A stretch of 64,000 nucleotides of DNA, from the NCBI GenBank assembly GCA_027605045.1, contig JAQFWX010000023.1, positions 558,001 to 622,000 on the forward strand, given 5' to 3'. The DNA comes from Phallus indusiatus. Lineage: Eukaryota; Basidiomycota; Agaricomycetes; Phallales; Phallaceae. This document shows positions 16,977 to 41,535 of this stretch, in pieces. Each line of letters opens with the position of its first letter. Position 1 is the first letter of the stretch. The notes below the pieces were generated by a model. The model ran no database searches, was not told the origin of the DNA, and was given only the letters and a program-made list of their open reading frames with translations. The position numbers and the translations under genes were made by a program.

Positions 16977-17630
16977 TGTTATGTAACCACTTCATCTCCC
17001 TCACCAAAAACATCAAGACATAAGGCTACGGCAACAAAACTCCATAAAAACAAACAAAACCAAATAATCCAAGGACTTCTACATTTCTCGTCTTCCACTT
17101 CTATTTTCTTTTCCAATCCTTTTGCCACTTTGATCATACATGACATCATCCGGCAAAACACTTCAGCCAAGGGTAATTAGTAGGAAAAAGGTTACGTTTA
17201 TTTATCCTTATCTATTTTTCCATCTCAAATATTGTGTCATCTCTTGTGTCATTTATTATGTAATTATTAGGTAGCGAGTAGAATAGTTTAGCCCTAAATG
17301 TGTATAATTAGGGCTCAGAAAATCATGTATCTACATCTTTTTGTTGTACCACACATCCAGTGTTAGCTAATAAAGCTTAGTAACAACAAAAGGGTCACTT
17401 TGACAAAGCACGCTTATCAAACCTCTTATCTAACTCTATCTGAGACTTGTGCTACAAGTCTCCCTCTTAACCTCTATTGTTCAACTAACATTTCTATAGA
17501 TCGGGAAATTTTCGCATAAGTACAGTTATTCCTGGCCTTACCTTTTAGTTGGATACGAATCTAGACGAAACGCTTAACAAGTAATTGTGTGTAACTCTAT
17601 TTGATTGGCACATCAAGGAGTTCCATAACA
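16977..17630 (+). repeat. 5' LTR of element C
   Basis: 654 bp. The sequence after it (AAACTGGTGGACGTTCTGGG) may hold a tRNA-type primer site starting TGG, four bases in. I could not assign the tRNA, and no self-priming match to the LTR is visible. Confidence 0.92.
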
Positions 17631-17822
17631 AAACTGGTGGACGTTCTGGGAAAGGAATTTCCTTGTTACTTGGAAAGACCTTTCCTGGCACTATACGGAT
17701 CTATCAAACTCTAAGCAATCAACCAAAATCATTCTATTACTTCCTATCAACCTCTCATACACTACTGGTTATCTTGTCAACAAGTTAAAGATTTTTGAAC
17801 TAGGTCCTGTCCTGGTTATTAC

Positions 17823-20800: not shown

Positions 20801-21365
20801 GAAGGATCAAAAACCAGTTTTCTCCCTAAAGAAAAATGATACTTCAGTACGAGCTGGAACGTCCATAATAATCCCTCCACAAACTGGTGTTTCAGTCCCT
20901 GTCAGATTGAACTTTCCAAAGGACTGTGACTATGCATATGTGGAGAAGATTTTTATTTCAAACAGAGGAGAAGAAGATTTTTATGCGGCACCAGATTCTA
21001 TTTTGCCTAAAGAAAATCCTCAACTCCATGTCTCAAACTTTTCCTCATTCCCTGTGCACATCCATGAAGGACAAGTGCTTGGATACAGTCATAATCCAAA
21101 TACTTGGTTAGAAAACACCGAATTCCTTTCTGAAGAAAAATATAGGAAGCTTGCAGCTCATGCAATTATGGTGAAAAGCTTGGTTGGATCCTTATCATCT
21201 AAAACTTCCTGTCCTCCTTCAGTTGGACAAGAAGAAGCTCTTGGTGGTCCAAAATTAGCAGAAGTTCCTCCTGAAGAAGTCTCTTCTTCTCAACTTCTAG
21301 AGGAAGTCGATATTTCCAAAGGACTATCTCCCAAACAGGCAGAAGATCTCAAAAGGTCTTGTTAG
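17823..21365 (+). CDS. Gag-protease of element C
   Basis: 1,180 residues from the ATG at 17823. The N-terminal 300 residues carry no motif I recognise. A Pro/Gly/acidic linker (residues about 335-410) precedes a Gag capsid-like region (VIPKWDGDPDTIARWINKVN and following, about 437-590). The nucleocapsid knuckle is CRHCGSSKHWDNEC (about 678-691). An aspartic protease core, RIVIDSGADITLISHAFL, lies near residue 862, with IILGNDFADQY-like flap end features (FILGNDFADQY) near 940. The stop TAG at 21363 lies inside the Pol frame. Pol is in -1 and open from 21275, so the two overlap by about 90 nt and Pol is probably made by -1 frameshifting. I found no canonical slippery heptamer with certainty. 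It is long for a fungal Gag. Confidence 0.88.
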   Translation: MDPPPSSPPGAAAPGSSEPNPFIQVRSKKKKRSRSPKTPEGTGTSGIDVTLPLSPSEIVDINDYNCQPLVTINPKETMPMLNRTPFVPGTSKRRSTYDTNKELEMRKNAILQIAQTLVVNPDRIPSVPLPKEAEEMSEEILTKLDKLLVGVPYHDNSMEEIGYHLDPIKLDNFKLMLSNLAKRAQAKLQGPLSIPIWGIDSYSLDIWSATDFELLCVLFRDDVETFLAYLYHNGVLFPPPNKGKKVKIEPGSVQSGGITPKIRQVKEEDIPFLSSLSQSPKTYSHVTKGFEDMKKVQVQRQFEPRLAEKSYTAKPTQISGSRRISELFQEPSFPAQSTPPRGQSAGAPGGGDSEPSSEDDQTPPRPPQRPSDPPSNPFRRNGGDGNDGGDGDSEPSDPSGGGGGGREPSRRRRSLGSYFRRTPKPPEKETHFDNKLKPDVIPKWDGDPDTIARWINKVNNLSERSTKIYEQLGTVVPTRLEKEADAWFWSLPLEHRREITQNWGTLRTAIGSYYMNRAWLDKQKSRANKAHYREPGHSTETPTTYFIRKTDLINLVYSYSDSEIMMEVMEGALRFWATILDPHRCKDLVEFSAAIKYHEDALQSHSGIPDSSLEKRLRNLEISLKNSKPQFAKFAPRFKARTNLIGQTPLLGKPPFPKDDSTVSKGTSPEKKGARPCRHCGSSKHWDNECKYAKRGAKKVRANFANPEPEYLEAMEEYEDAYLNATSDEGEPPDLEVVSEDDKADENSNPTNQDFHEALQVQVVSESQSSPQAETMRTQSSLEGSPSSGKKKDDEIPRKKRRLLNGIFKVSNFMGNVCKSVAQDILSLPKMMARPPGCSFLGAQATATEGWIGSYGYNKSRIVIDSGADITLISHAFLSKMKDPPRIKVGQKINLIQVTGSSSISGFITLPIYFDTDSGPIEIVVEAYVVKGMTTPFILGNDFADQYAISILRDDDGARLHFGNSGRTIKVQNSLGSSFTEGLGKVFTISSKKKDQKPVFSLKKNDTSVRAGTSIIIPPQTGVSVPVRLNFPKDCDYAYVEKIFISNRGEEDFYAAPDSILPKENPQLHVSNFSSFPVHIHEGQVLGYSHNPNTWLENTEFLSEEKYRKLAAHAIMVKSLVGSLSSKTSCPPSVGQEEALGGPKLAEVPPEEVSSSQLLEEVDISKGLSPKQAEDLKRSC

Positions 21366-24300
21366 CTAACAAGGATGCCTTTGGCTTAGATGGAAGACTT
21401 GGACATCATCCTGCGCAAGTGGAAATTCCCCTGCGAGAAGGAACTAAAGAAATTTCAGTTCCACCCTTCTTTGCGTCTCCAAAGTCACGAACTGTAATTG
21501 ATGAACAAATGGACAAGTGGCTCAAGTTGGAAGTCATTGAACCATCCAAAAGCCCTTGGGGAGCCCCTGCGTTCATAGTTTACAAACAGGAAAAACCACG
21601 AATGGTTATTGACTATCGGAAATTAAACGAGAAAGTTATTCCAGATGAATTTCCTCTTCCAAGACAAGAAGACATTCTAAAATCCCTAACTGGATCACAA
21701 TGGCTCTCTACACTGGATGCTCTTGCGGGATTCACACAGTTAGAGATTGTTGAAAAAGATAGGAAGAAAACAGCTTTCAGGACCCATCGTGGCTTATTCC
21801 AATTCATTAGAATGCCTTTTGGATACAGGAATGGTCCTGCGGTGTTCCAAAGGGTTATGCAAAATGTCCTGGCACCTTATCTTTGGATTTTCACTCTTGT
21901 CTATATAGATGATATAATCATCTACTCGAAGACCTTTGAAGATCACCTGCTGCACATCGACTCAGTTCTAAAAGCTATCACTAGCGCTAAAATTACACTT
22001 TCACCAGCAAAATGTCATTTTGGATATCAATCTCTTAAACTTCTTGGTCAAAAGGTTTCAAGACTCGGACTCTCCACCTATAAAGAAAAGGTTGATGCTA
22101 TCCTTCAACTTTCGGAACCCAAAAATGTTCACGAGCTTCAAACATTTCTGGGAATGATGGTTTATTTTGCCGCATATATTCCTTATTATGCGTGGATTGT
22201 AAATCCATTATTTTCCTTGCTCAAGAAAAAGACAACTTGGGTCTGGGAAGAACCACAACAACAAGCATTTGAACTAGCCAAGAAAGCTCTTACAAGTGCT
22301 CCAGTCAGAGCTTATCCTATTCCGGGATTAGGGTACAGATTGTACACTGACGCTTGTGATATTGGAGTTGCGGCTATTCTCCAACAAGTCCAACCGATCA
22401 AAATCAAAGATTTAACTGGAACTAAAATTTATAAGAAGCTAGAAATGGCTCATAGGAAGGGGGAATCCATTCCTAACTTGGTTGTTGCGGTCTCAAAAGA
22501 TGAAGTCTTACCACAGAACGGAACTTGGGCTGAAAACTTTGAAAACACCACCGTCTATGTTGAAAGAGTTATTGCGTATTGGTCCAGAACTCTGAAATCT
22601 GCTGAGAGAAATTATTCTCCCACAGAACGGGAAGCTTTGGCTCTAAAAGATGGTCTCATCAAGTTCCAACCTTACATAGAAGGAGAAAGCATCTATGCAA
22701 TCACCGACCATGCTGCATTGACTTGGACAAAAACTTACCAGAACATTAATCGAAGACTACTCACTTGGGGAACAATTTTTGCGGCCTATCCTGAATTAAA
22801 AATTGTTCACAGAGCAGGACGAGTCCACTCTAATGTTGATCCAATCTCAAGACTCAGAAGAAGAATTCCTGACGAAATGGGACCTATTGCGGATGGATTA
22901 GACTCACTTAAATTGTCAACAGCTGATGAAGATCCCTTGTCAAATTTCTTCGAAGAATTAGGACCAGAATTCGAGTCTAAAGTTCTTCAAGTTTCCACGA
23001 GTGCACTTTCTGCGGAAATTGAAAAAGAAACAGACTTTCAAGAATTTTCAATTCCATTGGAAAACCCTTACATGGGATTCTTCACAATCCCTTACACTAC
23101 TGCTCACGGATACTCCATTCTGATCGCGGCAGACAAGGAAGAAATCAAAAAATTTCTTCAAGGGTATAAACAAGACAATTATTTTCGAAGAATTAAAGAA
23201 GGACTTAAAACCGAAGAAGATTGGGAAAGACCCTCTTATCCTCAATATTATATGACAGACGAAGACCTTTTAATTTTCGAAGATGAGACAGGTCGAACTC
23301 GACTTTGCGTTCCAAAGAAATTACAGCTCGAAATCATCAAAACGGCCCATGATGAGTTAGGTGAAGGTGCACATGAAGGTTACCACCGAACCTACAACAG
23401 GATTGCATCCAATTTTTATTGGCCAAGAATGTCCCGCGATATTCTAAAATATGTCCGAACCTGCGACATATGCCAAAAAATTAAATCTCGAAAACATCTT
23501 CCAGTAGGACTTCTCCAACCTATCCCAATTCCAGGAAGACCTTTTGAAGTCATTACCATGGACTTTATCATGGAACTTCCAAAAAGCGGAGACTACGATG
23601 CTATCTTGGTTGTGGTCGACAAACTCACAAAATTTGCAATAGTCATGCCATGCACTTCTGACATCAATGAAGAAGAAACCGCAAATCTTGTTTTTCATTA
23701 TGTGTTCAGGACTTATGGCTTACCGAGACAAATCATTACCGACCGAGACTCACGATGGACGGGTCGATTTTGGGAAAGTCTTTGCAAACAAATGGGAATT
23801 AAAAGAGGTCTTACGACTGCGTATCACCCCCAGAGTGATGGTCAAAGCGAAGTTCTTAATCAAGCACTTGAAGTTTGTTTACGAGCTTATGTCGGACCGG
23901 AACGAAATGATTGGAATAAATTGTTGGATGGATTTATGCTATCTTACAACACATCTAAACATTCTGCTACGGGATATACGCCATCATTTCTTCTTTTCGG
24001 ATTCGAACCGCTCTCCCAATTGAAAATGTTTGCACCAACGCAAAACAAAGTTACACGTGCAATGGAGCAAGCAACTGCAGACAGAAGAGCTCAAATTGTC
24101 GAAAAAGAAATTGCAAAGAAGAAAAGCCTGAAGTCTTACCTCAAAAGAAAACGAGCCGAAATAGGTGAAGGAACAAGTTCTGGAGATGACGTTCAAAAGA
24201 AGAAATTAAAAACCGAAAACCCACTCACCGGTGAACAAGACGTCCTGATGACGGAAGCTCTAGAAGAGTCAACAGACTCTGAACTAGATCGAGAATATAT

Positions 24301-26638
24301 TAAAAGTCTCAAAGGGAAAATACGCGAGAAAAACATACCGCGAAAGGTCAAAATCCTAATGGTAGAAGCCAAACCCTTCTGCGCGCAAGAAATAACCGAG
24401 GAAACTACAAACAAAAATCAAGCGCAGAATGTGGCAATAAATCAAGTAACCAAACGGAAGAATATACGTACCAAAAACGCGTCAAAACATGTGCCTTACA
24501 CTACGCGTCGTCCCGGTGTTCACTACACTGGAGATGGGGACGAAGATCGTCGCCCAGAGCTCCAGGAAGGGGTGCGGAACTCGACAACGGCTGTTCAGAC
24601 AGTCAGTATAGACCCTAAAGAAGAGATCCCGAACGCAAACTTACCGGAAATCTTCCCGTGGGACCTAGAATGGACGAACGCGTCCTCTTACTATAAGGGA
24701 TGGGGAGGAGGCACAACCGCGTTTCCAGAAGCATGGAAAAACGAGCGGGTAACTATAAAAAGAGATGACGTTAGGTTTAAAAATGAAACGGAGAATATTC
24801 TCCAACTTACCCGACCAAATTTCAACGTTCCGGAAGCTCTACAAGCTAGCGCGACTCCCCTGGACCAGGAGGAGAACATGGTGGCGGCGGAAACGTCTAT
24901 TCCCGAAGAAAAAACAGAGTTGGGAACTGTTTTTATGAACGGAATTAGTCCTCAAGACGACGATAAAATGAAGAACAAACTCACCTGGTATCAAACCAAC
25001 GCTCCAGAGCTGGTATCGCGCGACGCGACTGGTATAGGGGGTGGCACGGGTTATAGGGCCGCGAACCAAGAAAACGCGACGTTTTCTGTAGGAAAATGGG
25101 CGCGGAAAATCGTTCGGAAAACTGGAGACGATTCAGAAGAGAGTAGGGAAGAAAAAAGAACAACCGACGTACCTTTAGCCAGCCCAGAAAGCCCAAAACT
25201 ACACGCAACGCGTACAGAGACGCGTAAGGACAGTGTTATAGCCGTAGAAAACGAAAGCGGGACGCGACAGCACTTGCTGATGGCTGGAAAAGCACCAGAT
25301 AATAAGGACGGTCGTTTTAAGACCAAAAACTCACCGTTTGAACGAAAATTGGACCAGGAAAAGCGCGACGTTGTTCCGGATGGGATCCAAAACCATGGTG
25401 AAAAAGAAAAAGCCGACGGTGGCCCAAAAACAAACGAAAAAACGTGTCTTGCGCCTGAAAAACAATTAGAAGACATTCAAAGCCAACGTCAAGCGGAAAA
25501 CTCACCAAAAGAACTTGGAAAACACGAAAAAATAGGTCGCGTCGTCCGAAAAGAAAGAGGCGACGCCACCCAAGGTCATTGGCGCCCGACGAGTGAGCCA
25601 ATGAAAATAGAGAAACCTGAAGACATAAATAATGGGAAAATTAACGACGTTGACGGGAAATATAGTAAAAGAATAAAGGACGGAACTTACGAGGAAAAGG
25701 AACAAAAGAACGTTTGCACCCGGAACAAAGGATTTAAGCAGAAAAACGACGCGCAAGGCTTAAAAACCGAAAAACAAGACAATTTCGAAGATTGTATCTC
25801 CAACCTAAATGAAGAACTGAAGATGAAAATTGAAAAATTACCCAAAGAAGAACTCACTAGAATGGTTGACGCTGCGAAAACCTTAACGAGGATGAAGAAC
25901 GAGGAAGAAATACATGTCGCTAAATGTCACACAACGCGTGTTGAAACATTTAGCGGGAAAAATAAAGGAAAGCAGAAGGAAATTGTCAGTCAAGAAATTG
26001 ACCAAACAAAGGAGGATGAAAAAATAAATTTAGAAGAAAATGACTTAAAAGGATGGAGTAAATTGGCAGATGAACAAGTCGAAAAATTTGCGGCAAGCAG
26101 AGCTCGAGCGCGAGACGCGCTAATTCTCGGACAAGTGTTTCAACAAAAATATTACAACAAGAAGCACGGAGCTTTTGAATTTAACGTTGGGGATAAGGTC
26201 TTAATAAATCAACGAACGACTAAACTATTGGAAAACGTCAAAGGCAAAGGAGAAAAATTATTAATTCGATATGACGGACCGTTCGAAATTACCGAGAAGA
26301 TAAGCAAGGTCGCCTACCGACTCAGAATGCCGGCCTCGTATGGGATGCACCCGGTATTGAATATAACGCACTTGGAGCCTTATTATGAGTCTCCAGAAGA
26401 GTTTGGAGAAAGACCCAACAAGAAATTGACTCGAAAGGATTTCGAAGAGTTACCGGAATTCGAAGTCGAAAGGATACTGGATGAGAAGTTCGCGCGACTC
26501 AGAAATAACAAACGACAAAAATTATTTCTGACCCGATTTATTGGATATGGACCAGAATATGACGAATGGCTCACTAAAAATCAACTCAAAAATGCCCCAG
26601 AAATTTTGAGAGTGTGGGAAAAGAGAGGAAAAACCTGA
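21359..26638 (+). CDS. Pol of element C (RT, RNase H, integrase, chromo-like end) with a long charged insertion
   Basis: The first listed codon is TTG; the frame is really open from 21275 and overlaps Gag in -1. Reverse transcriptase has VIDYRKLNE and the catalytic YIDDIIIYS (near 21904). RNase H begins at LYTDACDIGVAA (about 22340). The integrase zinc finger is HEGYHRTYNRIASNFYWP...CDICQ (about 23372-23475). The catalytic core has ITMDFIMELP, ITDRDSRWTGRFWE and YHPQSDGQSEVLNQALE (second Asp and Glu). The core normally runs straight into the YYN..H...F..GD.V domain. Here about 630 residues rich in Lys, Glu, Asn and Arg (about 24150-26060) separate them. The end (YDGPFEITEKIS, LNITHLEPYYESPEEFG, FLTRFIGYGPEYDEWL) is chromodomain-like. 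Confidence 0.9.
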   Translation: MLANKDAFGLDGRLGHHPAQVEIPLREGTKEISVPPFFASPKSRTVIDEQMDKWLKLEVIEPSKSPWGAPAFIVYKQEKPRMVIDYRKLNEKVIPDEFPLPRQEDILKSLTGSQWLSTLDALAGFTQLEIVEKDRKKTAFRTHRGLFQFIRMPFGYRNGPAVFQRVMQNVLAPYLWIFTLVYIDDIIIYSKTFEDHLLHIDSVLKAITSAKITLSPAKCHFGYQSLKLLGQKVSRLGLSTYKEKVDAILQLSEPKNVHELQTFLGMMVYFAAYIPYYAWIVNPLFSLLKKKTTWVWEEPQQQAFELAKKALTSAPVRAYPIPGLGYRLYTDACDIGVAAILQQVQPIKIKDLTGTKIYKKLEMAHRKGESIPNLVVAVSKDEVLPQNGTWAENFENTTVYVERVIAYWSRTLKSAERNYSPTEREALALKDGLIKFQPYIEGESIYAITDHAALTWTKTYQNINRRLLTWGTIFAAYPELKIVHRAGRVHSNVDPISRLRRRIPDEMGPIADGLDSLKLSTADEDPLSNFFEELGPEFESKVLQVSTSALSAEIEKETDFQEFSIPLENPYMGFFTIPYTTAHGYSILIAADKEEIKKFLQGYKQDNYFRRIKEGLKTEEDWERPSYPQYYMTDEDLLIFEDETGRTRLCVPKKLQLEIIKTAHDELGEGAHEGYHRTYNRIASNFYWPRMSRDILKYVRTCDICQKIKSRKHLPVGLLQPIPIPGRPFEVITMDFIMELPKSGDYDAILVVVDKLTKFAIVMPCTSDINEEETANLVFHYVFRTYGLPRQIITDRDSRWTGRFWESLCKQMGIKRGLTTAYHPQSDGQSEVLNQALEVCLRAYVGPERNDWNKLLDGFMLSYNTSKHSATGYTPSFLLFGFEPLSQLKMFAPTQNKVTRAMEQATADRRAQIVEKEIAKKKSLKSYLKRKRAEIGEGTSSGDDVQKKKLKTENPLTGEQDVLMTEALEESTDSELDREYIKSLKGKIREKNIPRKVKILMVEAKPFCAQEITEETTNKNQAQNVAINQVTKRKNIRTKNASKHVPYTTRRPGVHYTGDGDEDRRPELQEGVRNSTTAVQTVSIDPKEEIPNANLPEIFPWDLEWTNASSYYKGWGGGTTAFPEAWKNERVTIKRDDVRFKNETENILQLTRPNFNVPEALQASATPLDQEENMVAAETSIPEEKTELGTVFMNGISPQDDDKMKNKLTWYQTNAPELVSRDATGIGGGTGYRAANQENATFSVGKWARKIVRKTGDDSEESREEKRTTDVPLASPESPKLHATRTETRKDSVIAVENESGTRQHLLMAGKAPDNKDGRFKTKNSPFERKLDQEKRDVVPDGIQNHGEKEKADGGPKTNEKTCLAPEKQLEDIQSQRQAENSPKELGKHEKIGRVVRKERGDATQGHWRPTSEPMKIEKPEDINNGKINDVDGKYSKRIKDGTYEEKEQKNVCTRNKGFKQKNDAQGLKTEKQDNFEDCISNLNEELKMKIEKLPKEELTRMVDAAKTLTRMKNEEEIHVAKCHTTRVETFSGKNKGKQKEIVSQEIDQTKEDEKINLEENDLKGWSKLADEQVEKFAASRARARDALILGQVFQQKYYNKKHGAFEFNVGDKVLINQRTTKLLENVKGKGEKLLIRYDGPFEITEKISKVAYRLRMPASYGMHPVLNITHLEPYYESPEEFGERPNKKLTRKDFEELPEFEVERILDEKFARLRNNKRQKLFLTRFIGYGPEYDEWLTKNQLKNAPEILRVWEKRGKT

Positions 26639-26723
26639 AGAGCCGAGTATATGCTTATAACTCGAACCTCCCGGAAGCAGATGAAGCTTCGCCCCTTTCA
26701 CCTCTTAAACACCAACCACAACC

Positions 26724-27563
26724 ATGTCGTCTCTTCCTGGCTATAACATCTACTTTTCTCCAGTCGCTCTCGCTGAAGATCCAACGCAAATCGTTCTAAC
26801 CCTTCCAAATCTCAAAGACAAGACCATTCCTGACAACTTTGTGCAACTCTCGGGCATAACTCCTGGCTATGTCGCCCAACCTTGTATCATCATCAAACCC
26901 AAGACTCAACCAAGTCATATAGTGAATATTGTCACTAATAATCAGCCGTTTCACTACACGCTTACGCCTCCAAATTTTGTTCCCAATTTCAATGAAACTC
27001 CTTCCACTTCTCAAGAGGCTTCCAACCCTTCCCCTATGGAGACAGACAGTCCTGCCGGATCTCTTTTCTCTGGACCTAGTCCTCCTGCTTCCATGGAACC
27101 TTCTAATTCTTCTTCTAATGCAGTAACTGCTTCTTCTGTTCCAACCACGTCTCACACTCCTGAGGAAATATCTGTCCCCAGAGAACCTTCTGTTCCAGTC
27201 GAACCCTCTCCTGTCTATCAACCAACCTCTCCTATCTATAGTCCTATTCCTAGTCATTCTCCAACTCCAATTCCTACTGCGCAAGCTTCTATAACTCAAA
27301 TAGAAGATATCACAGACGAAGAGGAGAAAAGATTGCTAAAAGTTCAGACTCTAAGAGCTTGGGGTCAGTACAAGGATATACTCAGGAACCATTTGGACAA
27401 AAACCCCACTCCCTTTCTAGCTGGGTTTATTAGGGAAGAATTTTCGGGATGGTATGAAGAGATTGTGTCAAGTCTCAACCACCAGGAACTTCACTTGTTC
27501 CAAGATGGACTCTATATGCCGGAAACTATCAAGGAGTACATGAGGCTTTACTTGGATCTCTGA
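26724..27563 (+). CDS. ORF3 of element C, unknown accessory protein
   Basis: 279 residues from an ATG with a good context (CACAACCATGT), 86 bp after the Pol stop and 97 bp before the 3' LTR. The N-terminal 95 residues are ordered-looking and rich in beta-forming residues (YNIYFSPVALAEDPTQIVLTL). A long Ser/Pro/Thr-rich stretch follows (about 95-195, with repeats such as PTSPIYSPIPSHSPTPIP). The end is a helical, acidic C-terminal domain (EEEKRLLKVQTLRAWGQYKDIL...MPETIKEYMRLYLDL). I see no signal peptide or transmembrane segment, so it is not envelope-like. A separate transcript or internal initiation would be needed. I do not recognise the family. Confidence 0.8.
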   Translation: MSSLPGYNIYFSPVALAEDPTQIVLTLPNLKDKTIPDNFVQLSGITPGYVAQPCIIIKPKTQPSHIVNIVTNNQPFHYTLTPPNFVPNFNETPSTSQEASNPSPMETDSPAGSLFSGPSPPASMEPSNSSSNAVTASSVPTTSHTPEEISVPREPSVPVEPSPVYQPTSPIYSPIPSHSPTPIPTAQASITQIEDITDEEEKRLLKVQTLRAWGQYKDILRNHLDKNPTPFLAGFIREEFSGWYEEIVSSLNHQELHLFQDGLYMPETIKEYMRLYLDL

Positions 27564-27641
27564 ATCATTTTTCATTCTCTCATTTCTCAACTGTCTTTTC
27601 ACTTTCCATCTCGACGTCTCGACTTCTCTTTCAAAAGGATT

Positions 27642-27656
27642 AGAAAAGAGGGGGAA
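27642..27656 (+). other. Polypurine tract of element C
   Basis: AGAAAAGAGGGGGAA lies three bases before the 3' LTR (27660), where the plus-strand primer for reverse transcription is expected. Confidence 0.75.
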
Positions 27657-27659
27657 TTC

Positions 27660-28313
27660 TGTTATGTAACCACTTCATCTCCCTCACCAAAAACATCAAG
27701 ACATAAGGCTACGGCAACAAAACTCCATAAAAACAAACAAAACCAAATAATCCAAGGACTTCTACATTTCTCGTCTTCCACTTCTATTTTCTTTTCCAAT
27801 CCTTTTGCCACTTTGATCATACATGACATCATCCGGCAAAACACTTCAGCCAAGGGTAATTAGTAGGAAAAAGGTTACGTTTATTTATCCTTATCTATTT
27901 TTCCATCTCAAATATTGTGTCATCTCTTGTGTCATTTACTATGTAATTATTAGGTAGCGAGTAGAATAGTTTAGCCCTAAATGTGTATAATTAGGGCTCA
28001 GAAAATCATGTATCTACATCTTTTTGTTGTACCACACATCCAGTGTTAGCTAATAAAGCTTAGTAACAACAAAAGGGTCACTTTGACAAAGCACGCTTAT
28101 CAAACCTCTTATCTAACTCTATCTGAGACTTGTGCTACAAGTCTCCCTCTTAACCTCTATTGTTCAACTAACATTTCTATAGATCGGGAAATTTTCGCAT
28201 AAGTACAGTTATTCCTGGCCTTACCTTTTAGTTGGATACGAATCTAGACGAAACGCTTAACAAGTAATTGTGTGTAACTCTATTTGATTGGCACATCAAG
28301 GAGTTCCATAACA
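27660..28313 (+). repeat. 3' LTR of element C
   Basis: 654 bp, matching 16977-17630 except for one noticed base. It is followed by the target duplicate GTAGA and the resumed Pol frame of A1. Confidence 0.93.
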
Positions 28314-33172: not shown

Positions 33173-33524
33173 TGTTAGGGCGACTCAGGGCACACACCTA
33201 GAGGAGGGAAAACCTAAGATCTATTGAGGGGCATCGACTAACTACTCACCTAGAGGAGGGAAAACCTAAGAGAACAAGCTTAGGTATCCCCCTCTAGGGA
33301 AAACGCATATAAGTACAGGATACGAAGCGCTCGACTGATCCCCATGGGATCCGAGGAGATACAGACAGAAATCGAGGAAAATCGAAGAGATCGAAAAATC
33401 GAGAAAACGATGGAACTAATGGAAACGGCAAAGTACGGGAAATGAAGGAAATCGTAACACGAAATGAAACCGAAAGAAATCGAAGGAATCGAATAATCGG
33501 AAAAGGCGCTAGCGTACCGTGACA
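33173..33524 (-). repeat. 3' LTR of A2
   Basis: 352 bp, minus orientation. The polypurine tract precedes it (plus-strand CCACCCCCCCCTTCAA from 33525). Confidence 0.93.
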
Positions 33525-33566
33525 CCACCCCCCCCTTCAACAAGGCGGCGACCCGACGCCTGAGAT

Positions 33567-36344
33567 TCAGCTATTAGGACGCGGAAGGAAAATAAGACCG
33601 CCAATCATTCTGGGTGCATTCGGATGAGATCGATAGAAATCTTGTACGAGATCGTGTGCTGCGACATCCTTCTCGGGAATCCATTGGTCGTGCTCGGGAC
33701 CATAGCCCTCCCAGCGAACCTTGAACTCCAGTCGCCGGCGGAAAACACGACTGTCCAATATTTCTTCAACCACATAATGTTCACCATCATCGCGAATCTC
33801 CGGGGGTGGAGGAGGTTTAGAACGACGACCTGGTATACTATCCGGTCTCATTGGTTTCAACTTACTGACGTGGAACACGGGGTGAATTCGAGACATCGAT
33901 TTCGGTAGAACGAGTCGATATGAGCGGGTCCCGACTTTGGTCGCGATGGGAAATGGGCCTAGGAAGCGATGCGATAATTTGGCAGATGGACGAGTGGTTT
34001 TGATATCGCTAGCATCTAGATAAACCTTATCTCCAGATTTGTAGTTAGGAGCCGGTAAATGTTTACGATCGTAGTACTTAGCCATGTCGTCCTTAGCCTT
34101 AAGAATCGCAGCGCGAGCTTCCTCCCAAGAATGAGACATCCTATTCTTGAAGTCATTAACCGATTCGATCTTCGATTCTGTTGAACGCGGTTCGAAACCC
34201 ATTCGAGGGTGGCGACCAGTATCGAGTTCGAAAGGTGTCGCTTGGGTAGCCGAATGAACATGATTGTTATATGCGAACTCGGCCATCGGTAGCAATCGAT
34301 CCCAGTCGTCTTGACGCTCAGAGGTGAAGATACGAAGATATTGCTCTACTTCAGCATTCGCTCGTTCTGTCTGACCATCGGTCTGGGGGTGGTACGCAGT
34401 AGAGCGCGCAAGCCGAATGCCAAGTAATCGAGAGAGTTCCTGGGTAAAACGAGACGAGAACTGAGGTCCTCGATCCGAGATGATCTTCTCGGGTAGTCCA
34501 TGCAACTTCCAGACGTGTTGGAGGTAGAGAGATGCAAGGCCAGAAGCGTCAACAGTAGTAAATGTTGGGACGAAATGAACCCGTTTCGTCAACGAGTCTA
34601 TTACAGAGAGGATTGCGTCATAACCATTCGATTCGGGGAGTTCGACAATGAAATCGACTGATATGAATTGCCAAGGTCGATTTGGAGTTTCGGTAGGTTG
34701 TAGTTCGCCATACGGAGCATGTCGAGAAGGTTTCGTCCGCATACAAGTGTCGCAAGCCTCTACATACCGCTGTACATATCGAGAAATCCCTGGCCACCAA
34801 AAGGTTCGCGATACCAGTTCCAATGTTTTAAATCGACCTGGGTGACCAGCGAGTTTGGTGTCATGGTGTCGTTGAACGATTTCTCGCCGTAGATCGTCTA
34901 CTTCGGGAACATAGATCTTCCCTCGGTAGTAAATGACATCCTGATCTTCAGCCCATTCGCTGGTGTGAACCGATCTCCCGCCTATCGCCTTGAGGGATTC
35001 GATGGCTTTCGAAACGCTATCTTCTCGTTTGCCTTCTCTGTTCGCCTTCCGTATCTGGCCTAGGAACTCGTCCTCCTCCCCTCTAAGGCGGAATGTTTGC
35101 ATGGCGTTGACGGCAAACATTTCGGGTTGGATTAGAGTGATATCTCGATTGTCCAACTTTCCCGAGCCATGATCGGCACGACGCGAAAGACCGTCAGGCT
35201 TACCCATCGATTTACCAGGTATATGCCGCAAGGTGAAATCGAAACGTGCGAGATAAACCGACCAACGAGCCTGCCTGCGATTTAGATTACGAGCCGTCAT
35301 GAAGTACTCTAGGTTTTTGTGATCCGTGCGAATGTCAATCGGATGAGTCGCACCTTCCAAGAAATGTCGCCACTCTTCTAATGCTCGAATGATAGCTAAC
35401 ATCTCTTTATCGTGGATTTCGTAATTTCGCTCCACCGGGCTCAAAGCCTTCGAGAAGAAGGCCACTGGATGCCATTTGTTGTCCTCGAGAGAAGGTTGAG
35501 ACAAGACGGCACCTGTCGCGAAATCAGAACTGTCAGCTTCTACCCGATAGGGCTTCGATGGATCGGGAATCGCAAGAACTGGGGCAGAGGTCATTGCCGA
35601 TTTCAGAGAATCGAAAGCTTGTTGACAAATGTCGGACCAGGTGAACGGGGCTTCTTTCTTAGTGAGACCGAATAAGGGGACAGCGATCCGTGAGAAGTCC
35701 TTGATAAATCGACGATAGAAGTTTGCGAAACCCAAAACGACTGCACCTCGGTGACATTTTTCGGGACTGGCCAATCTCTGACACCCGACACCTTCGCGGG
35801 ATCCATTTCGACAGTGTTCTCGGAGATGACCAGACCTAAATACTCGATCTTAGTACGACAGAATTCACACTTCTCGGCTTTGAGATAGAGTTTATGCTCC
35901 TTAGCCGTTCTAAGACACGACGTGTGATGCGATCGTGTTCTTCTTTCGTTCTCGTGTAGATCAGGATATCGTCGATATAAACAGCCACAACCCCTCCGTG
36001 ATCATGTCTTCGAAAATCTCGTTCATCATCGTCTGGAAGGTCGCTGGACTGTTAGTCAGACCAAAGAACATGACCAAGGGTTCGAACAGTCCTCGATTTG
36101 TGCGAAATGCTGCTTTCCACTCATCGCCCTCTTTGATGCGAACATTGTTGTATCCCCATCTAACATCGAGTTTCGTGAAGTACTTCGCACCCCTTAATTT
36201 GTTGACAAGTTCGGGAATTAGGGGTAACGGGTATCGATTTTTGATGGTCATCGCGTTGAGAGCTCGATAGTCTTGAATAAGTCGTAGAGAGCCGTCTTTC
36301 TTCTTGATGAAGAAAACCGGGGAAGCCATGGGCGATTTCGAGGG
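33567..36344 (-). pseudogene. A2 Pol: RT, RNase H, integrase, chromodomain
   Basis: From 36344 downward it reads [20 protein letters not shown] into the RT palm, loses frame just before VYIDDIL (one G short near 35993), and again near 35736 before LGFANFYRRF. From there one frame of about 730 residues runs unbroken through RNase H, integrase and the chromodomain to 33567. This shows the joined sequence that A1 has lost at 30076 and 31045. The catalytic motifs match those listed for A1. Confidence 0.9.
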
Positions 36345-36349
36345 GCGGA

Positions 36350-36651
36350 TGTAACGGATTTGGGATATAGGAATGGGCCCCCCTGGGGCCCATTAATGGC
36401 CTAGTGCCCATGCAGTGCCTTTGGCACTGCAGCTGCAGTAGTTGCGCGTCACAGCGTGACGCTTAAGCGCCCGTCACACCTTTACAGCGGTGTGACCAGT
36501 AGTTACATTAGTGAATCTTAATCTTTCCTACTACTACTGCATGTAATTCCCTATTAGCCTAACTGAGCAATAGACAGGAATTCTGTGCACTTGTGGGAAA
36601 ATAAGAAAACCCTTTATCAGACCCCCCTGTGGTCTGATAAAAACTGTTACA
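36350..36651 (+). repeat. 5' LTR of element D
   Basis: 302 bp with five hairpins: 9-bp stem and 3-nt loop at 36373-36393; 8 and 3 at 36412-36430; 7 and 3 at 36446-36462; 8 and 8 at 36473-36496; 10 and 7 at 36614-36640. No clear TATA box was found. Confidence 0.92.
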
Positions 36652-36700
36652 TCTTTTTGCACAGCTCCATCCACAGATAGTGGAGCTATTGCCACACCCT

Positions 36701-37714
36701 ATGTCTGTAGCCACAGAGCTGTATCAGTACAAGCTCAAAGCTTTGGGCAATGTCCTTAGCACTTTCCAGAAGCTGGAAAGAACCCATACTGACTCTAAAA
36801 GAGTCAGATACACTGCCAGTTTGGCAGACCAGCTTGAGGAGCTGGATGATCTCCTCATCCCTGCTGCAGCCAGCAGGGATCCATTTAAGGATTGTGTCCT
36901 TTCAAGGACACTTCATATCAGCAGTTTTACAGCTGATTTTACAACTGTACTATTGGGTCAGTTGAGACCATCTTTCTTTGAAAGATGGGGTATGAGATGG
37001 CCTTCTGACAGCCACTCCTCTGTCTGTACCAGACAGAAACTCATTGATAAGCTTGTTCTTATCAGTAAAATCATCCTTAGTGATGAAAAGACTGGTTTGG
37101 AGTTCCTCCCAGTCCTTAGAGCCAGCTGGGGAGATCCTGCTTCATGGGCTCCTCCTGCCCCTCTACCTGCCCCTCCTGGAGGCATGGAAGGTTCCCAGGC
37201 TACCTTAGCCTGTAGTTCCATCACTGTTAGTGATGTAAAAGCTGGAAAAGAGGTCCCTAGCCCTCTCCCAGCTCCCCAGGCAGCTCCAGAGGTACCCACT
37301 CCTCCTGCCTGTCCCCCTGCTCCTCCTGAGGACAGGAAAGCTTCTGGGCTTATCCCAGATCATCTTCCTATACTCCAAAAGGAAGATAAACAAGCTGAGG
37401 AACTTCCCAGTCCCCCAGCAATGTTGCCTGAGGCTATGGAGACAGGTGCTCCTCCTGCCTCAGTCCCACCTGTCTTTGCAGACAGGAAAAAGTTAAATAG
37501 CTGTTTGGCTATTTTACCAGGGGAAGAGTCACATGGGAAACCAAGTGATTCATTCATTTTTTCATCCAATTCCCTTGGATCTTTTTTCCTTCCTTCAGCT
37601 CCAAGCAGAAGGAGCACCTCTGCCTCCCAGAGGTGCACAGGGGTCAGACTTTCTGACTCCAGATCATCCAGTAGTCCTAACAGACTCTCCAAGGATCTTT
37701 TTAGAGTTCCTTAA
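36701..37714 (+). CDS. Single ORF of element D, unknown, possibly Gag-like
   Basis: 337 residues from the first ATG (36701). The N-terminal 145 residues look helical (ELYQYKLKALGNVLSTFQKL, SLADQLEELDDLLIPA, RQKLIDKLVLISKIILSDEK). After residue 145 the chain is Pro/Ala/Ser-rich and probably disordered (APPAPLPAPPGG, PPACPPAPPEDR). A helical front and proline-rich tail in a lone ORF between LTRs recalls GAG-only non-autonomous elements, but I see no zinc knuckle, so this is inference. Coding is compatible with about 20 perfect hairpins, for example at 36762-36780, 36789-36807, 36859-36878, 36968-36988 and 37614-37636. This is a strong constraint on codon choice. Confidence 0.7.
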   Translation: MSVATELYQYKLKALGNVLSTFQKLERTHTDSKRVRYTASLADQLEELDDLLIPAAASRDPFKDCVLSRTLHISSFTADFTTVLLGQLRPSFFERWGMRWPSDSHSSVCTRQKLIDKLVLISKIILSDEKTGLEFLPVLRASWGDPASWAPPAPLPAPPGGMEGSQATLACSSITVSDVKAGKEVPSPLPAPQAAPEVPTPPACPPAPPEDRKASGLIPDHLPILQKEDKQAEELPSPPAMLPEAMETGAPPASVPPVFADRKKLNSCLAILPGEESHGKPSDSFIFSSNSLGSFFLPSAPSRRSTSASQRCTGVRLSDSRSSSSPNRLSKDLFRVP

Positions 37715-38002
37715 ACACTGACAGAGTGGATAATTCTGTCAGTCTGCTGCCATGCTCCCAGTGATTTATCTCAGTCATTTTTGGGCTACAGTAGATCTTT
37801 TACTGGACTTAAATGGTCCAGTACATTCCCTCATCATCACCTGATGAGTTTTATTTATTTTTATTTTGCCCTTCCTTCCCCATTTCCATTCCTTATTCCC
37901 CCCTCCCTATTTGCGCTTTTGCGCGTCACGCGTCACGCGTGACAATCCCTTTTCTCCTGCCTTTCTTCAGTTTGACTTGGTTCCCAAGTCAGCCGGGGAA
38001 GA

Positions 38003-38304
38003 TGTAACGGATTTGGGATATAGGAATGGGCCCCCCTGGGGCCCATTAATGGCCTAGTGCCCATGCAGTGCCTTTGGCACTGCAGCTGCAGTAGTTGCGC
38101 GTCACAGCGTGACGCTTAAGCGCCCGTCACACCTTTACAGCGGTGTGACCAGTAGTTACATTAGTGAATCTTAATCTTTCCTACTACTACTGCATGTAAT
38201 TCCCTATTAGCCTAACTGAGCAATAGACAGGAATTCTGTGCACTTGTGGGAAAATAAGAAAACCCTTTATCAGACCCCCCTGTGGTCTGATAAAAACTGT
38301 TACA
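38003..38304 (+). repeat. 3' LTR of element D
   Basis: 302 bp, same as the 5' LTR. It is preceded by GGGGAAGA (37995-38002), a short polypurine tract. Confidence 0.92.
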
Positions 38305-38309
38305 GCGGA

Positions 38310-39755
38310 TTCGACCAGAACGAAGATTCTCTTCCAGGAACGCATCGAGCTCCTTCTGTTCATTAGGCGAAAGGGGGTACACCTTGCAAAACTTGGGATC
38401 CGAATCAGGTAGGAGCTCTATCGCATGATCCCACTTCTTCGAAGGTGGCAATGAATCGAAAGACTCTTTCGCGAAAACGTCTTCGAAATCGTGGAACATT
38501 TCGGGGACGATCTCTCGAAATCCAGATTTGAGTGTACCTGTTAGGGCTACTCAGCTCAGGCTAGAGGGAGGGGATCCTAAGATAATATATTGCGGAAAAC
38601 ACTAACTACTCACCTAGAGGGAGGGGATCCTAAGAGAACAAGCTTAGGGACCCTCACTCTAGGGACAGCGACTATATACATGAAAAACGATAGCGCGGCG
38701 TGCGGCCCTGACACAACTAAGTGCTAGGCGCCCGAACCGAACCTAAGCGACGTGATGTCACGGGCATCACGCCGAGTACGAGCGCGCGACGCGCGCGAGT
38801 AAAGAAAGTGAAATAGAGGCAGAACGAGGAAACGGAAAATGGAAGTAATGGACGGGAAATGTAAATGAAATAGAAATAAACATATACCGATAATAATAAA
38901 TAAGGAAAGTAAGGGGACGCGGTAGCGTACCCTGACAGTACCCCTTGTGTTATTCGCATGCGCCTGAGCCAATCGCTGTGAGATGGTTTCAGTTGCTCTG
39001 ATGCGGCAACTGTCCAGGGGTTCTGAATTAAGAGAAACCGCGAACAGTCGATCTCCCTCTTCTGGGTGAAACTCATCCTCCACATTCACGAGATCTGGCA
39101 TATCTGGATCTGTGGATTCGGTTTCGTCAAGGGTGACAGGAGGGATTGCTCGAACTGAACGTAGGAAACGTTTTGGGCCTTTCTTTTCGACAGGAGGCGG
39201 TCTACAAGATCGACATTCGGGATTACACCGGGTCAGCTCCACCTCACCAGTTGAGTAGTCAATCACCGGGTTATGAGCCTTGAACCAGGGTAATCCAAGC
39301 AGCACTGGGTACTTGCCGAGGGCAGTGATGGCAAACATGACGCGTTCGGAATGTGTCTGATATCGCATCACCAAGTCCACCACGTGTGTGATGTTTCCTG
39401 CTTGGTTGGGAGTACCATCAACGTTGAAAACGGGAATCGGTTTCGGTAAGCGAATCTTCGGGAGCCGATTTTTCTCGACAAAGTCTTGGTCAAGGAACAT
39501 CCCACTGGCACCGGTGTCAAGCATCGCCTTTGAATGAATGAGATCGCCAGTGTCGGTGCTCTGGAGTTCTACATCGATTTCGAGTTTTTGAGTGCCGGCA
39601 GTGGCGTTCAGACGGTATTCGTGTGGAATCCGCTTGCGTTTTCCAATCGAAAGGCGACGAGGAGCAGGGATCGGAGGATTTGAGGGAGGAATAGATGCAT
39701 CAGAATCAATAGAATTCGAATCAGAAGTCTCATTGCACTTGTCGTCTATGTACAA
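38310..39755 (-). pseudogene. A2 Pol: protease and RT start, split by solo LTR-B
   Basis: From 39755 the protease frame reads to CNPECRSCRPPPVEKKG without the C insertion seen in A1, then on to AHANNTRGT at 38943. There the solo LTR-B interrupts. It resumes at 38533 as LKSGFREIVPEMFHDFEDVF and runs to LRSGRIR at 38310, where D enters. The aspartic protease motif is DTGASGMF. Confidence 0.88.
38539..38937 (-). repeat. Solo LTR of family B
   Basis: 399 bp, complete, with target duplicates GTACC at 38534-38538 and 38938-38942. It supplies the reference for the interrupted copy at 14257. In minus orientation the ends are TGTCAGGGTACGC and CCCTAACA. Confidence 0.92.
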
Positions 39756-39796
39756 TACATCGAATCTATTTGATGTCGGCAGTGAGGGCGCATCCC

Positions 39797-40768
39797 TTAC
39801 TCGCTGCCATTCTGAAAATCCTCTCTGGTCGAAGTGATCGCGATCTCATTTTCTTCGACAGCAATCTCAGCACGATTCTGCGTTTCCAGCACATCTTGTT
39901 GAGTGAAGCGTTGTTCGAGAATTTCGTCGATTTCATCGGCCTGCATGAATCGAACATCGAACGCGCGTGGGCAGTCCTTAACGAGATGGCCTAACTGCCC
40001 ACATCGGAAGCACCGGGCTGTCTCAGTCTGTACGCGGCGACGAGCAGCGTCAACCTCCATGGCATCATTTCGGATTGGAGGTACGACGTTAACTGAAGTA
40101 GAAACCGATGGTCGTACAGGGGGAGAGATGGTGGTAGGAATCGATGCGCGAGGCGGGGGAAAGGGAGGTGGGGAGTAGATAGGGGGTCCAGCTGTACGTT
40201 GATAGACCGGGAAGGGGCTGGGTCGAGTTCGGGATATCGGAATCGACGTAAGAGGGGTTGAAATCGAATTACCGGGAACGACTCGTCGTTGGGTGGCATT
40301 GAAAGCATCGTTGGTACGATGAGCTTGATCGAAAAGACGAGCGGCTTGAACCCAGCCTTCGTAATCGCTATAATCGGGTCGATTCTGCATCGTTCCAACC
40401 TTACTGGCGATTTCTCGATCTAAGCCCTGTCGGTAGTAGGTGGTTAACGCAAGACCATCATGAACCGTGAAACCCGCGCGATCCATGATAATGCGAAAGG
40501 CGTCAGTGTAATCATCTACGTTTCGACCTCCTTGAGCATAACGTCCTGAAAGAAGGAGGTTCAGCGAATCTTCAGCCTCGGTTACCGGGAAGAATTCAGA
40601 GCGAAACTTTTGTCGGAAGTCTTCCCAGGTCTCATAAGGAACCAACCCTCGATTGTACTGGGCCTGAATAAGCTCGGCGAAGGCACCAGCACGCCCACTA
40701 TTCATGTAAGAAAGTACCCAAACGATTTTGGTACTGAGATTCGGGAAATCGCTGCCACATACGCTCAT
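39797..40768 (-). CDS. Gag of A2
   Basis: 323 residues, the same as A1 Gag at the protein level as far as I can compare, with the CFRCGQLGHLVKDC knuckle. The ATG is at 40768 in the +1 frame relative to the N-terminal segment at 40765-41040, which is joined by the same A-run problem (GCAAAACGG). Two point differences from A1 were noted near the 3' end (around 39786 and 39868). Confidence 0.88.
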   Translation of the reverse strand: MSVCGSDFPNLSTKIVWVLSYMNSGRAGAFAELIQAQYNRGLVPYETWEDFRQKFRSEFFPVTEAEDSLNLLLSGRYAQGGRNVDDYTDAFRIIMDRAGFTVHDGLALTTYYRQGLDREIASKVGTMQNRPDYSDYEGWVQAARLFDQAHRTNDAFNATQRRVVPGNSISTPLTSIPISRTRPSPFPVYQRTAGPPIYSPPPFPPPRASIPTTISPPVRPSVSTSVNVVPPIRNDAMEVDAARRRVQTETARCFRCGQLGHLVKDCPRAFDVRFMQADEIDEILEQRFTQQDVLETQNRAEIAVEENEIAITSTREDFQNGSE

Positions 40769-41040
40769 GTAAAGATCGACAGAGTTCCAGAAGGTACGGC
40801 CGTTTTGCGATCCCCATCATAGGCGAGAGGTACAGCAGGGCGAGTGTTTCGAGACGATCTCGTCTCGTTTTGGGGATTTGGAGCCGAGGCTCTGGGATTG
40901 GGGTTTGTCGGATTAGAGGGATCGGCAGCAGGAGCCTGAGGGGTGAAGAGTCGGTCGAGATGAGTTACGAGCTCTTCTATTCTTTGTTCAATCGCAGAGA
41001 GGCGACTTTCAGTAGTAGGGTCACTCTCTTCTAGATCCAT
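40765..41040 (-). CDS. Gag N-terminal segment of A2
   Basis: 91 residues, the same as in A1, starting MDLEESDPTTES. It overlaps the Gag ATG by 4 nt (ATGA), so a reinitiation mode of expression would also be possible. Confidence 0.7.
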   Translation of the reverse strand: MDLEESDPTTESRLSAIEQRIEELVTHLDRLFTPQAPAADPSNPTNPNPRASAPNPQNETRSSRNTRPAVPLAYDGDRKTAVPSGTLSIFT

Positions 41041-41183
41041 GACGAAAGAAATCGAAGAACGAAGGACGGAGGGGTCGTTTTATGGGCGAAAAGCGTCGGG
41101 AACGTCTGAGACAATGCTGACAAAGAGTTTCCGAAAGAAACGACAATAGAAACGACCGGTCCGAAGGTAGAAGCTTGTTCTAC

Positions 41184-41535
41184 TGTTAGGGCGACTCAGG
41201 GCACACACCTAGAGGAGGGAAAACCTAAGATCTATTGAGGGGCATCGACTAACTACTCACCTAGAGGAGGGAAAACCTAAGAGAACAAGCTTAGGTATCC
41301 CCCTCTAGGGAAAACGCATATAAGTACAGGATACGAAGCGCTCGACTGATCCCCATGGGATCCGAGGAGATACAGACAGAAATCGAGGAAAATCGAAGAG
41401 ATCGAAAAATCGAGAAAACGATGGAACTAATGGAAACGGCAAAGTACGGGAAATGAAGGAAATCGTAACACGAAATGAAACCGAAAGAAATCGAAGGAAT
41501 CGAATAATCGGAAAAGGCGCTAGCGTACCGTGACA
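41184..41535 (-). repeat. 5' LTR of A2
   Basis: 352 bp, minus orientation. The self-priming site lies at 41171-41181 (minus strand AGAACAAGCTT), two bases inside. Confidence 0.93.

What the first reader, a model, noticed from the sequence alone, without database searches (positions are those of the whole stretch)
36350..38304. A whole LTR element tiled with short perfect hairpins
Element D is 1,955 bp, has 302-bp LTRs and a 5-bp target duplicate, and carries one ORF. Reading along it, I count at least 28 perfect stem-loops of 6-10 bp with loops of 2-15 nt, about one per 60-70 bp. They occur in the LTR, the coding part and the untranslated parts. Fifteen have stems of 8 bp or more, for example 36373-36393 (9), 36614-36640 (10), 36762-36780 (8), 36789-36807 (8), 36968-36988 (9), 37019-37037 (8), 37614-37636 (9), 37717-37743 (9), 37801-37823 (8), 37925-37943 (8) and 37973-37991 (8). 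For random sequence with loops of 2-9 nt, 1955 x 8 / 65536 gives about 0.24 such stems. No other element in the window looks like this. Since codons must obey it, the pairing is presumably selected or generated by a copying process. Options: RNA packaging or stability, protection from RNA silencing, a template-switching signature, or a mutational process that makes inverted repeats. I do not know a named family with this property.
Basis: partly seen in the sequence, partly recalled or inferred. Interest (0 to 1): 0.93.

Follow-up and report, generated by a model that had tools for sequence, protein, structure and literature searches.

The report
Retrotransposon clade tiled with hairpins
A group of jumping genes in this mushroom-type fungus, including their protein-coding parts, is packed with short exact mirror-complement sequences far beyond chance, for a reason that is not yet known.

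Summary
Element D (36350-38304; 302-bp LTRs, 5-bp TSD) holds 39 non-overlapping perfect stems of 6 bp or more and 20 of 8 bp or more; dinucleotide shuffles give 6.1 and 0.38. Synonymous codon shuffles of the ORF give 4.9 against 23 observed.
D is not alone. The four other full-length copies found hold 40-41 stems each; in one (C173) the ORF is only 53-54% identical in protein. A high-copy Ty3 family (E) shares D's LTR ends, start of the primer-site region and polypurine tract but no other sequence match found. It is equally tiled: 62 stems in 3 kb of pol, 7.5 expected. So tiling marks a clade with pol-bearing members; D is a CpG-free non-autonomous rider.
The pairing is local (gaps up to about 25 nt) and gives G-U wobble no credit, unlike rRNA. 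Stem positions turn over between two pol families. That argues against ordinary sense-RNA structure. It favours exact inverted repeats made or kept during the retrotransposition cycle, most likely by fold-back copying in reverse transcription; this step is inferred (0.4), and two direct tests gave it no support. Main rival: selection for hairpins in both RNA and cDNA.

The parts
36345..36349 (.). 5-bp target-site duplication GCGGA (left copy)
   Evidence: sequence; repeated at 38305-38309
36350..36651 (+). 5' LTR, 302 bp, TGTAACGG...CTGTTACA, 5 perfect stems of 7-11 bp
36652..36665 (+). primer-site region TCTTTTTGCACAGC directly after the 5' LTR; first 7 nt shared with families E and F (no canonical TGG start seen)
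   Evidence: primer not identified
36641..37714 (+). open reading frame, 357 codons stop to stop (first GTG at 36680, first ATG is codon 21); no Pfam match, no homologue found; 0 CpG in 36652-37711; 23 stems of >=6 bp in 36680-37714
37715..38002 (+). 3' part after the ORF with 5 stems and an ACGCGT-rich palindrome cluster (37914-37944); the other four copies carry 23 bp more here
37995..38002 (+). purine tract GGGGAAGA before the 3' LTR (E/F-type junctions: GGGGAGGA)
38003..38304 (+). 3' LTR, identical to the 5' LTR
38305..38309 (.). target-site duplication GCGGA (right copy)
33173..41535 (-). Ty3 chromodomain element C interrupted by D; its pol is not hairpin-tiled (8 stems in 2.2 kb, codon shuffle 5.5)

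Best explanation
D is a young non-autonomous LTR retrotransposon. Shown: it shares terminal LTR bases, the first 7 nt of the primer-site region and a near-identical polypurine tract with two families, E and F, that together have 100 exact copies of one end junction; E bears a Ty3-type chromodomain pol. D, E and F are tiled with short exact local inverted repeats, while Ty3 family C in the same genome is not. Inferred: D is mobilised by E/F enzymes. Inferred, about 0.4: the repeats are made and repaired in the retrotransposition cycle by fold-back copying. The reverse transcriptase (or repair of cDNA) briefly copies one arm of an imperfect hairpin from the other, as in quasipalindrome correction. 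The property shown is exact Watson-Crick inverted repetition within about 25 nt, not wobble-tolerant RNA structure.
For: Excess in D, in the four other full-length copies, in E (L061 LTR 7 vs 1.1; first 1.5 kb 23 vs 3.6; L086 pol 62 vs 7.5) and in F (L064, 15 vs 2.8 in 1.5 kb). D has no significant match to the E/F pieces held (blastn best E 0.13, tblastx nothing at E <= 1) yet shares the end junctions, so tiling follows shared ends, not homology. Enrichment only at gaps up to ~25 nt; local direct repeats are not enriched in E. G-U treated like any mismatch: 8-column helices with one non-pair, WC 49x, GT 6.3x, AC 9.0x, AA 12.7x over shuffle; in E. coli rRNA GT (6 found, 3.5x) is like WC (1 found, 3.0x), and with 6 columns GT 31 (1.8x), WC 16 (1.9x), AC 21 (1.2x). 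Tiling spans LTR, ORF and 3' part. Stem positions turn over: 2 of 21 shared between E and E2 pol. Template switching is a documented way to create and repair perfect stems (PMC8794818, abstract and first lines).
Against: No block signature: differences are not concentrated in one arm (E P = 0.19, the other three comparisons in the opposite direction). Private changes of copies gain stems no more than random: 20 of 253, 16.5 expected; this mostly samples host mutation after insertion, so power against a reverse-transcriptase process is low. Compensated pairs among close copies are rare: 2 compensated against 116 single in the five sets. A seeming codon-phase preference (58 of 107 stems in one register) is largely explained by amino-acid order: synonymous shuffles give 45%, p = 0.05. 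The helper role of E/F is inferred from ends only; the E pol piece read lies in more than one frame (ORFs 2-1648, 1555-1818, 1791-2999 of L086), so that copy may be defective. Pol of F was not read. Why only this clade's enzyme would do this is unexplained.
Confidence: 0.4

Rival explanations
1. Selection within the cycle for hairpins in both the genomic RNA and the minus-strand cDNA (compaction, packaging, protection from nucleases or silencing). Any hairpin anywhere will do, so positions turn over; wobble is disfavoured because G-U in RNA is A-C in the cDNA.
For: Lineage-level changes avoid stems in the E LTR: shared variable columns 5 of 118 in stems, 8 of 25 in loops, 27 of 177 outside. 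In the four close D copies variable columns in the ORF region are 22 of 571 outside, 2 of 342 in stems, 0 of 155 in loops. Private changes are random. D against C173 shows compensated pairs above slid controls, 17 vs 4-7, more weakly in reverse, 8 vs 2-5.
Against: The D-type LTR set shows no stem/loop/outside difference (43/2156, 10/572, 85/4488) and the E 5' pieces little (10 of 304, 9 of 171, 42 of 1037 shared columns). No long-range pairing excess. No known factor that would reward this. Selection for stability should give G-U or G-T at least partial credit over A-A, and it does not.
Confidence: 0.3
2. Genome-scale ordered structure of the sense RNA, as in some RNA viruses and partly in Ty1/Ty3 RNA.
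For: Sense RNA of 36652-37640 folds at -402 kcal/mol against -301 for 20 shuffles, z -12.0. Stem centres are partly conserved between D and C173.
Against: G-U wobble gets no credit although it should pair in RNA, unlike the rRNA control. The antisense strand is also strongly structured, z -7.9. Stem positions are not conserved between E and E2 pol. Long-range complementarity is near background.
Confidence: 0.12
3. A host DNA-replication or repair process makes inverted repeats in these sequences after insertion.
For: Template switching by host polymerases is known (PMC8794818 abstract; PMC8604942, listing only). A mild background excess exists in parts of the window, e.g. 83 vs 56.6 in 44-64 kb, and in flanks of 14 D-type LTR loci, 241 vs 111.9, only partly explained by E/F pieces there.
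Against: Element C pol lacks a clear excess (8 vs 5.5). Private changes in copies do not gain stems. Four of 13 E loci (L065, L068, L071, L078) have 11-14 stems against 22-23 in L061/L062/L076, as decay after insertion would give, though some of these copies are also rearranged.
Confidence: 0.05
4. Chance, base composition, codon use or assembly artefact.
For: None found.
Against: Dinucleotide and synonymous-codon shuffles; five full-length copies with different TSDs.
Confidence: 0.01

Closest known systems
Coding palindromes in mitochondrial genes of Nematomorpha (PMC6649704; abstract and passages read)
   Same: Many perfect inverted repeats inside conserved protein-coding sequence; no excess of imperfect repeats; repeats gained and lost; template switching named by the authors as one possible mechanism.
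   Different: Animal mitochondrial genomes, repeats up to 284 bp with a codon-phase shift in the long ones; here a nuclear LTR retrotransposon clade, 6-11 bp, also in LTRs and untranslated parts, and no clear phase effect beyond amino-acid order.
Template-switch mutations that create and maintain hairpins (PMC8794818; abstract and first lines read)
   Same: Predicts perfect, local stems and multi-pair compensated changes.
   Different: Described for DNA replication in RNA genes, not as an element-wide property of a mobile element.
Yeast Ty3 and Ty1 genomic RNA structure (PMC11381356; passages read)
   Same: LTR retrotransposon RNA with many structured regions (stable, highly structured regions up to 30% of Ty1 and Ty3 RNA).
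   Different: The passages seen describe measured RNA folding, not tiling with exact inverted repeats; not compared directly here.
TRIM, LARD and TR-GAG type non-autonomous LTR elements (names recalled; TRIM papers seen in listings only)
   Same: Short LTR element without pol that shares ends with longer elements.
   Different: D is 1.95 kb with one ORF that has no Pfam match; tiling and lack of CpG are not part of those definitions as I recall them.
Retrozymes (PMC4918200, listing only)
   Same: Small non-autonomous retrotransposons with RNA structure.
   Different: No hammerhead or other ribozyme match in D at E <= 1.

Membership tests
LTR retrotransposon | Two direct LTRs with TG...CA ends and a target-site duplication | tested here: met
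   302-bp LTRs 100% identical, TGTAAC...GTTACA, 5-bp TSD GCGGA; the four other full-length copies have TSDs CGAAG, CAGTC, ATTTT, GTCTC
LTR retrotransposon | Polypurine tract before the 3' LTR | tested here: met
   GGGGAAGA at 37995-38002
LTR retrotransposon | tRNA primer binding site after the 5' LTR | tested here: inconclusive
   TCTTTTTGCACAGC, no TGG start; primer not sought systematically
Autonomous Ty3 (chromodomain) element, for E | RT, RNase H, integrase and chromodomain in Ty3 order | tested here: met
   L086: RVT_1, RT_RNaseH, then rve (29.6 bits, below the curated 32.6), SH3_Tf2-1, Chromo (25.1, at cut-off)
Autonomous Ty3 (chromodomain) element, for E | Intact pol and activity | tested here: inconclusive
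   Only 3 kb of one copy's pol region was read; its long ORFs lie in different frames; other copies' pol not read; activity not testable
Non-autonomous partner of E/F, for D | No own pol, ends shared with a pol-bearing family | tested here: met
   No Pfam match in the ORF; PPT/LTR-start and LTR-end/primer junctions similar to E/F within 3 mismatches. Mobilisation itself not tested
Genome-scale ordered RNA structure | RNA folding energy well beyond shuffles | tested here: met
   z -12.0 sense with 20 shuffles, but also -7.9 antisense
Genome-scale ordered RNA structure | G-U pairs accepted as pairs | tested here: not met
   GT 6.3x, AC 9.0x, WC 49x; rRNA control GT 3.5x, WC 3.0x on small counts
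Retrozyme | Hammerhead ribozyme | tested here: not met
   Rfam scan of 36200-38500: 5 matches at E <= 1, all far below gathering scores, none a ribozyme
Coding palindromes by template switching | Exact local stems with arm-to-arm conversion | tested here: inconclusive
   Exactness and locality met; arm conversion not detected

The most novel reading that the evidence does not exclude
A Ty3 retrotransposon clade whose copying machinery writes short exact inverted repeats into whatever it copies, LTR, pol gene or passenger, so that sequence palindromy is a heritable by-product of its reverse transcriptase and proteins evolve under it.
Probability: 0.33. Interest if true: 0.92.

Novelty: new variant of a known kind. 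Interest (0 to 1): 0.82.

Why it matters
Reverse transcriptase and integrase genes here carry exact local palindromes at about 19-21 per kb, and a passenger without sequence similarity but with the same ends shows the same. Either an enzyme leaves a systematic palindromic mark on everything it copies, or hairpins in both RNA and cDNA are strongly selected in a retroelement. Both are testable, and either gives a natural experiment on how hairpins arise and persist in coding DNA, a question already raised for nematomorph mitochondria and RNA genes.

Tried and rejected
Rejected: chance, composition and codon use (shuffles); uniqueness to D; ribozyme/retrozyme; captured known gene (none of 8000 and 7999 scored candidates at E <= 0.001 and <= 10; the search needs shared 5-residue words). 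Chance primer-site look-alikes (L072-L075, L077, L079) have stem counts within the range of their shuffles. LTR pairs on C2, C111, C112 and C140 do not bracket a recognisable autonomous element with D's LTR. Relatives in viral contigs: none with one sequence or with the 22-sequence alignment. 563 protein relatives of E RT were found, but their DNA could not be reached, so tiling outside this genome is untested. Arm-asymmetry and stem-gain tests for template switching gave no support. A codon-phase preference (58 of 107 stems, p = 1.2e-5 against one third) was dropped as evidence: synonymous shuffles give 44.8%, p = 0.05, codon-order shuffles 37.7%, p = 0.0006. Papers: searched the open-licence library; no paper on hairpin-tiled LTR elements seen in the listed titles and abstract starts (2-20 listed per search); subscription journals are mostly not held. 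An AlphaFold2 model of the ORF protein was uninformative (mean pLDDT 37.4, 3 sequences), so no fold search was made. Rows dropped before counts: three E loci (L068, L071, L078) from the E 5' sets, L071 and L078 from the E LTR sets (no LTR start found), D-type LTRs not covering positions 3-300, and L066 from the F 5' set.

Full report
What was checked. D lies at 36350-38304 and interrupts the pol region of a minus-strand Ty3 element C (33173-41535). It has identical 302-bp LTRs, a 5-bp duplication GCGGA, a purine tract GGGGAAGA and one ORF of 357 codons stop to stop. Counting all perfect stems (loop 2-15, non-overlapping, longest first) gives 39 of >=6 bp and 20 of >=8 bp; 200 dinucleotide shuffles give means 6.06 and 0.38 and maxima 14 and 3. 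The ORF alone has 23 and 8, synonymous-codon shuffles 4.94 and 0.53 (maxima 12 and 4 of 200). LTR and 3' part are each in excess. Other stretches of the window have 0.95-1.6 times their shuffles, 17630-20000 in element A 2.4 times (stems of >=6 bp).

Copies. The genome (67.2 Mb, 206 contigs, unnamed) holds D, three copies at 96-97% identity (C149, C1, C139) and a fifth, C173, plus 35 LTR-only matches in the listing; only 40 of 72 candidates were scored. Each full-length copy has its own 5-bp duplication. Stems of >=6 bp: 39, 40, 40, 41, 41. C173 has LTRs 96% identical to D's and a 3' part close to the others (alignment), but its ORF is 53-54% identical in protein (159 of 301 aligned; 54%); the frame is open over the same number of codons, 357. 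Nei-Gojobori dN/dS is 0.63, 0.45 for codons 18-120 and 0.71 for 171-357. Its ORF has 26 stems against 4.4 in codon shuffles. In a codon alignment 15 of 24 D stems (3 of the 24 unaligned) have a C173 stem within 5 nt of the same centre, and 17 pairs are changed on both sides and still pair, against 4-7 when partners are slid by 3 or 6. In the reverse direction the excess is weaker, 8 against 2-5.

A second property. The ORF region has 0 CpG in 1060 bp at 49% G+C; C173 has 2 in 1071. The window has CpG observed/expected 1.00 and element C pol 1.28. D's CpGs in one LTR plus internal part sit only in the LTR (8) and the 3' part (8). CpG loss is not needed for tiling, because family E is tiled with normal CpG (1.02).

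The wider clade. Patterns for the LTR-end/primer-site and purine-tract/LTR-start junctions of D, with up to 3 mismatches, found two further families: E (about 320-bp LTR, 13 of the loci read) and F (about 264-bp LTR, 6 loci). The exact junction GTTACATCTTTTTTAACACC occurs 100 times (47 + 53), its reversed control never. In the copy at C1 the two junctions lie about 8.55 kb apart. A 3-kb piece between them (L086) encodes RT, RNase H, integrase and chromodomain segments, in more than one frame, so this copy may be defective. It holds 62 stems of >=6 and 21 of >=8 bp; shuffles give 7.45 and 0.52 with maxima 14 and 4 of 100. Codon shuffles: RT-RNase H 31 against 5.9, integrase part 26 against 3.5; controls: C pol 8 against 5.5, A pol 30 against 15, A gag 25 against 15.5. 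E LTR 7 against 1.1, E first 1.5 kb 23 against 3.6; F 15 against 2.8 in 1.5 kb. D has no significant match to these E and F pieces: blastn best E 0.13, including the short junction matches, tblastx nothing at E <= 1. So tiling goes with shared ends, presumably with shared machinery (inferred).

What kind of pairing. (i) Distance: stems of >=7 bp exceed shuffles at gaps of 2-25 nt (E: 11/0.8, 17/0.5, 18/0.8, 10/1.2, 6/1.9 in successive bins) and sit near background from 26 to 320 nt, apart from a moderate D/C173 excess at 81-160 nt (23/14.1) that has a matching direct-repeat excess (46/17.2), probably from the ORF's internal repeats. Local direct repeats are not enriched in E; D/C173 have some at short gaps (7/0.6 at 4-6 nt, 2/0.5 at 2-3). 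(ii) Wobble: in 8-column helices with one non-Watson-Crick column, observed over shuffle is WC 49x, GT 6.3x, AC 9.0x, AA 12.7x, TT 8.9x. E. coli 16S+23S rRNA by the same code gives WC 3.0x, GT 3.5x, AC 1.0x, TT 3.8x on small counts (1, 6, 2 and 2 cases); with 6 columns WC 1.9x, GT 1.8x, AC 1.2x (16, 31 and 21 cases). (iii) Loops: 19 of 43 stems of >=7 bp in D and C173 have 3-nt loops; in E pol 6 of 36, the loops being spread. (iv) Codon phase: 58 of 107 ORF stems pair codon position 1 with 3 and 2 with 2. This looked significant against one third but synonymous shuffles of the same ORFs already give 44.8% (p = 0.05), so I draw nothing from it.

Turnover and change. E pol against a relative E2 (L009, 73% DNA and 289 of 351 protein identity, synonymous sites saturated): both tiled (21 and 13 stems against 2.8 and 2.6), but only 2 of 21 stem centres are shared within 2 nt. 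Compensation from E to E2 is absent (1 against 1-5 slid); from E2 to E it is 4 against 0-1. Among E LTR copies shared changes fall in 5 of 118 stem, 8 of 25 loop and 27 of 177 other columns. F LTR and D ORF point the same way, E 5' pieces weakly (10 of 304, 9 of 171, 42 of 1037), the D-type LTR set not at all. Private changes gain a stem in 20 of 253 cases, 16.5 expected, and lose one in 63, 68.9 expected. Differences are not concentrated in one arm.

Reading. Chance, codon use and artefact are excluded. Ordinary sense-RNA structure is disfavoured by the wobble result and by turnover. Host mutation after insertion is disfavoured. What remains acts during the retrotransposition cycle and sees exact complementarity over at most ~25 nt: fold-back copying in reverse transcription (preferred, 0.4) or selection for hairpins on both RNA and cDNA (0.3). 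I could not separate these here: the tests have little power, since synonymous sites are saturated and private changes mostly post-date insertion.

Known context. Nearest are the coding palindromes of nematomorph mitochondria (PMC6649704, abstract and passages) and template-switch creation of hairpins (PMC8794818, abstract and first lines). Nine library searches listed no hairpin-tiled LTR element. The E reverse transcriptase has 563 relatives among 8000 scored candidates, up to 66% identical in the 120 listed; the organisms named there (Agrocybe, Pleurotus, Trametes, Leucocoprinus, Ceratobasidium, Peniophora, Pisolithus, Meripilus) are agaricomycetes by my own knowledge. Whether their DNA is tiled is the first thing to find out.

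Noticed in passing
window 16977-28313: Complete-looking Ty3 element A with LTRs of 654 bp (99.8% identical); its 5' (gag) half, about 17-22 kb, is CpG-depleted (o/e 0.07-0.5) while much of the pol half is normal, and it has a mild stem excess.
   Followed up: partly
window 36652-37711: Complete absence of CpG in the ORF region of D in a genome window with CpG o/e 1.0; cause unknown.
   Followed up: partly
window 37914-37944 and C149, C1, C139, C173 copies: ACGCGT/GTCACGCG palindrome cluster in the 3' part; D lacks 23 bp that the other four copies have.
   Followed up: no
L022:1107-1650, L007:1910-2660, L020:2600-3080, L021:3950-4380: Further clusters of stems of >=7 bp in flanks of D-type LTRs with no match to the D, E, F, A or C pieces held; possibly more tiled families.
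   Followed up: no
L061:1507-1535 and L068: The primer-site region of family E lies in a hairpin, with one mismatch in L061 and most other E loci and perfect pairing in L068 (GGTGTT for GGCGTT; similarly family F L067), seen.
   Followed up: no
window 37149-37460; L024 (C173 ORF): The ORF contains diverged repeats of about 150 nt (PPACPPAPP...DRK units); C173 has more of them than D.
   Followed up: no
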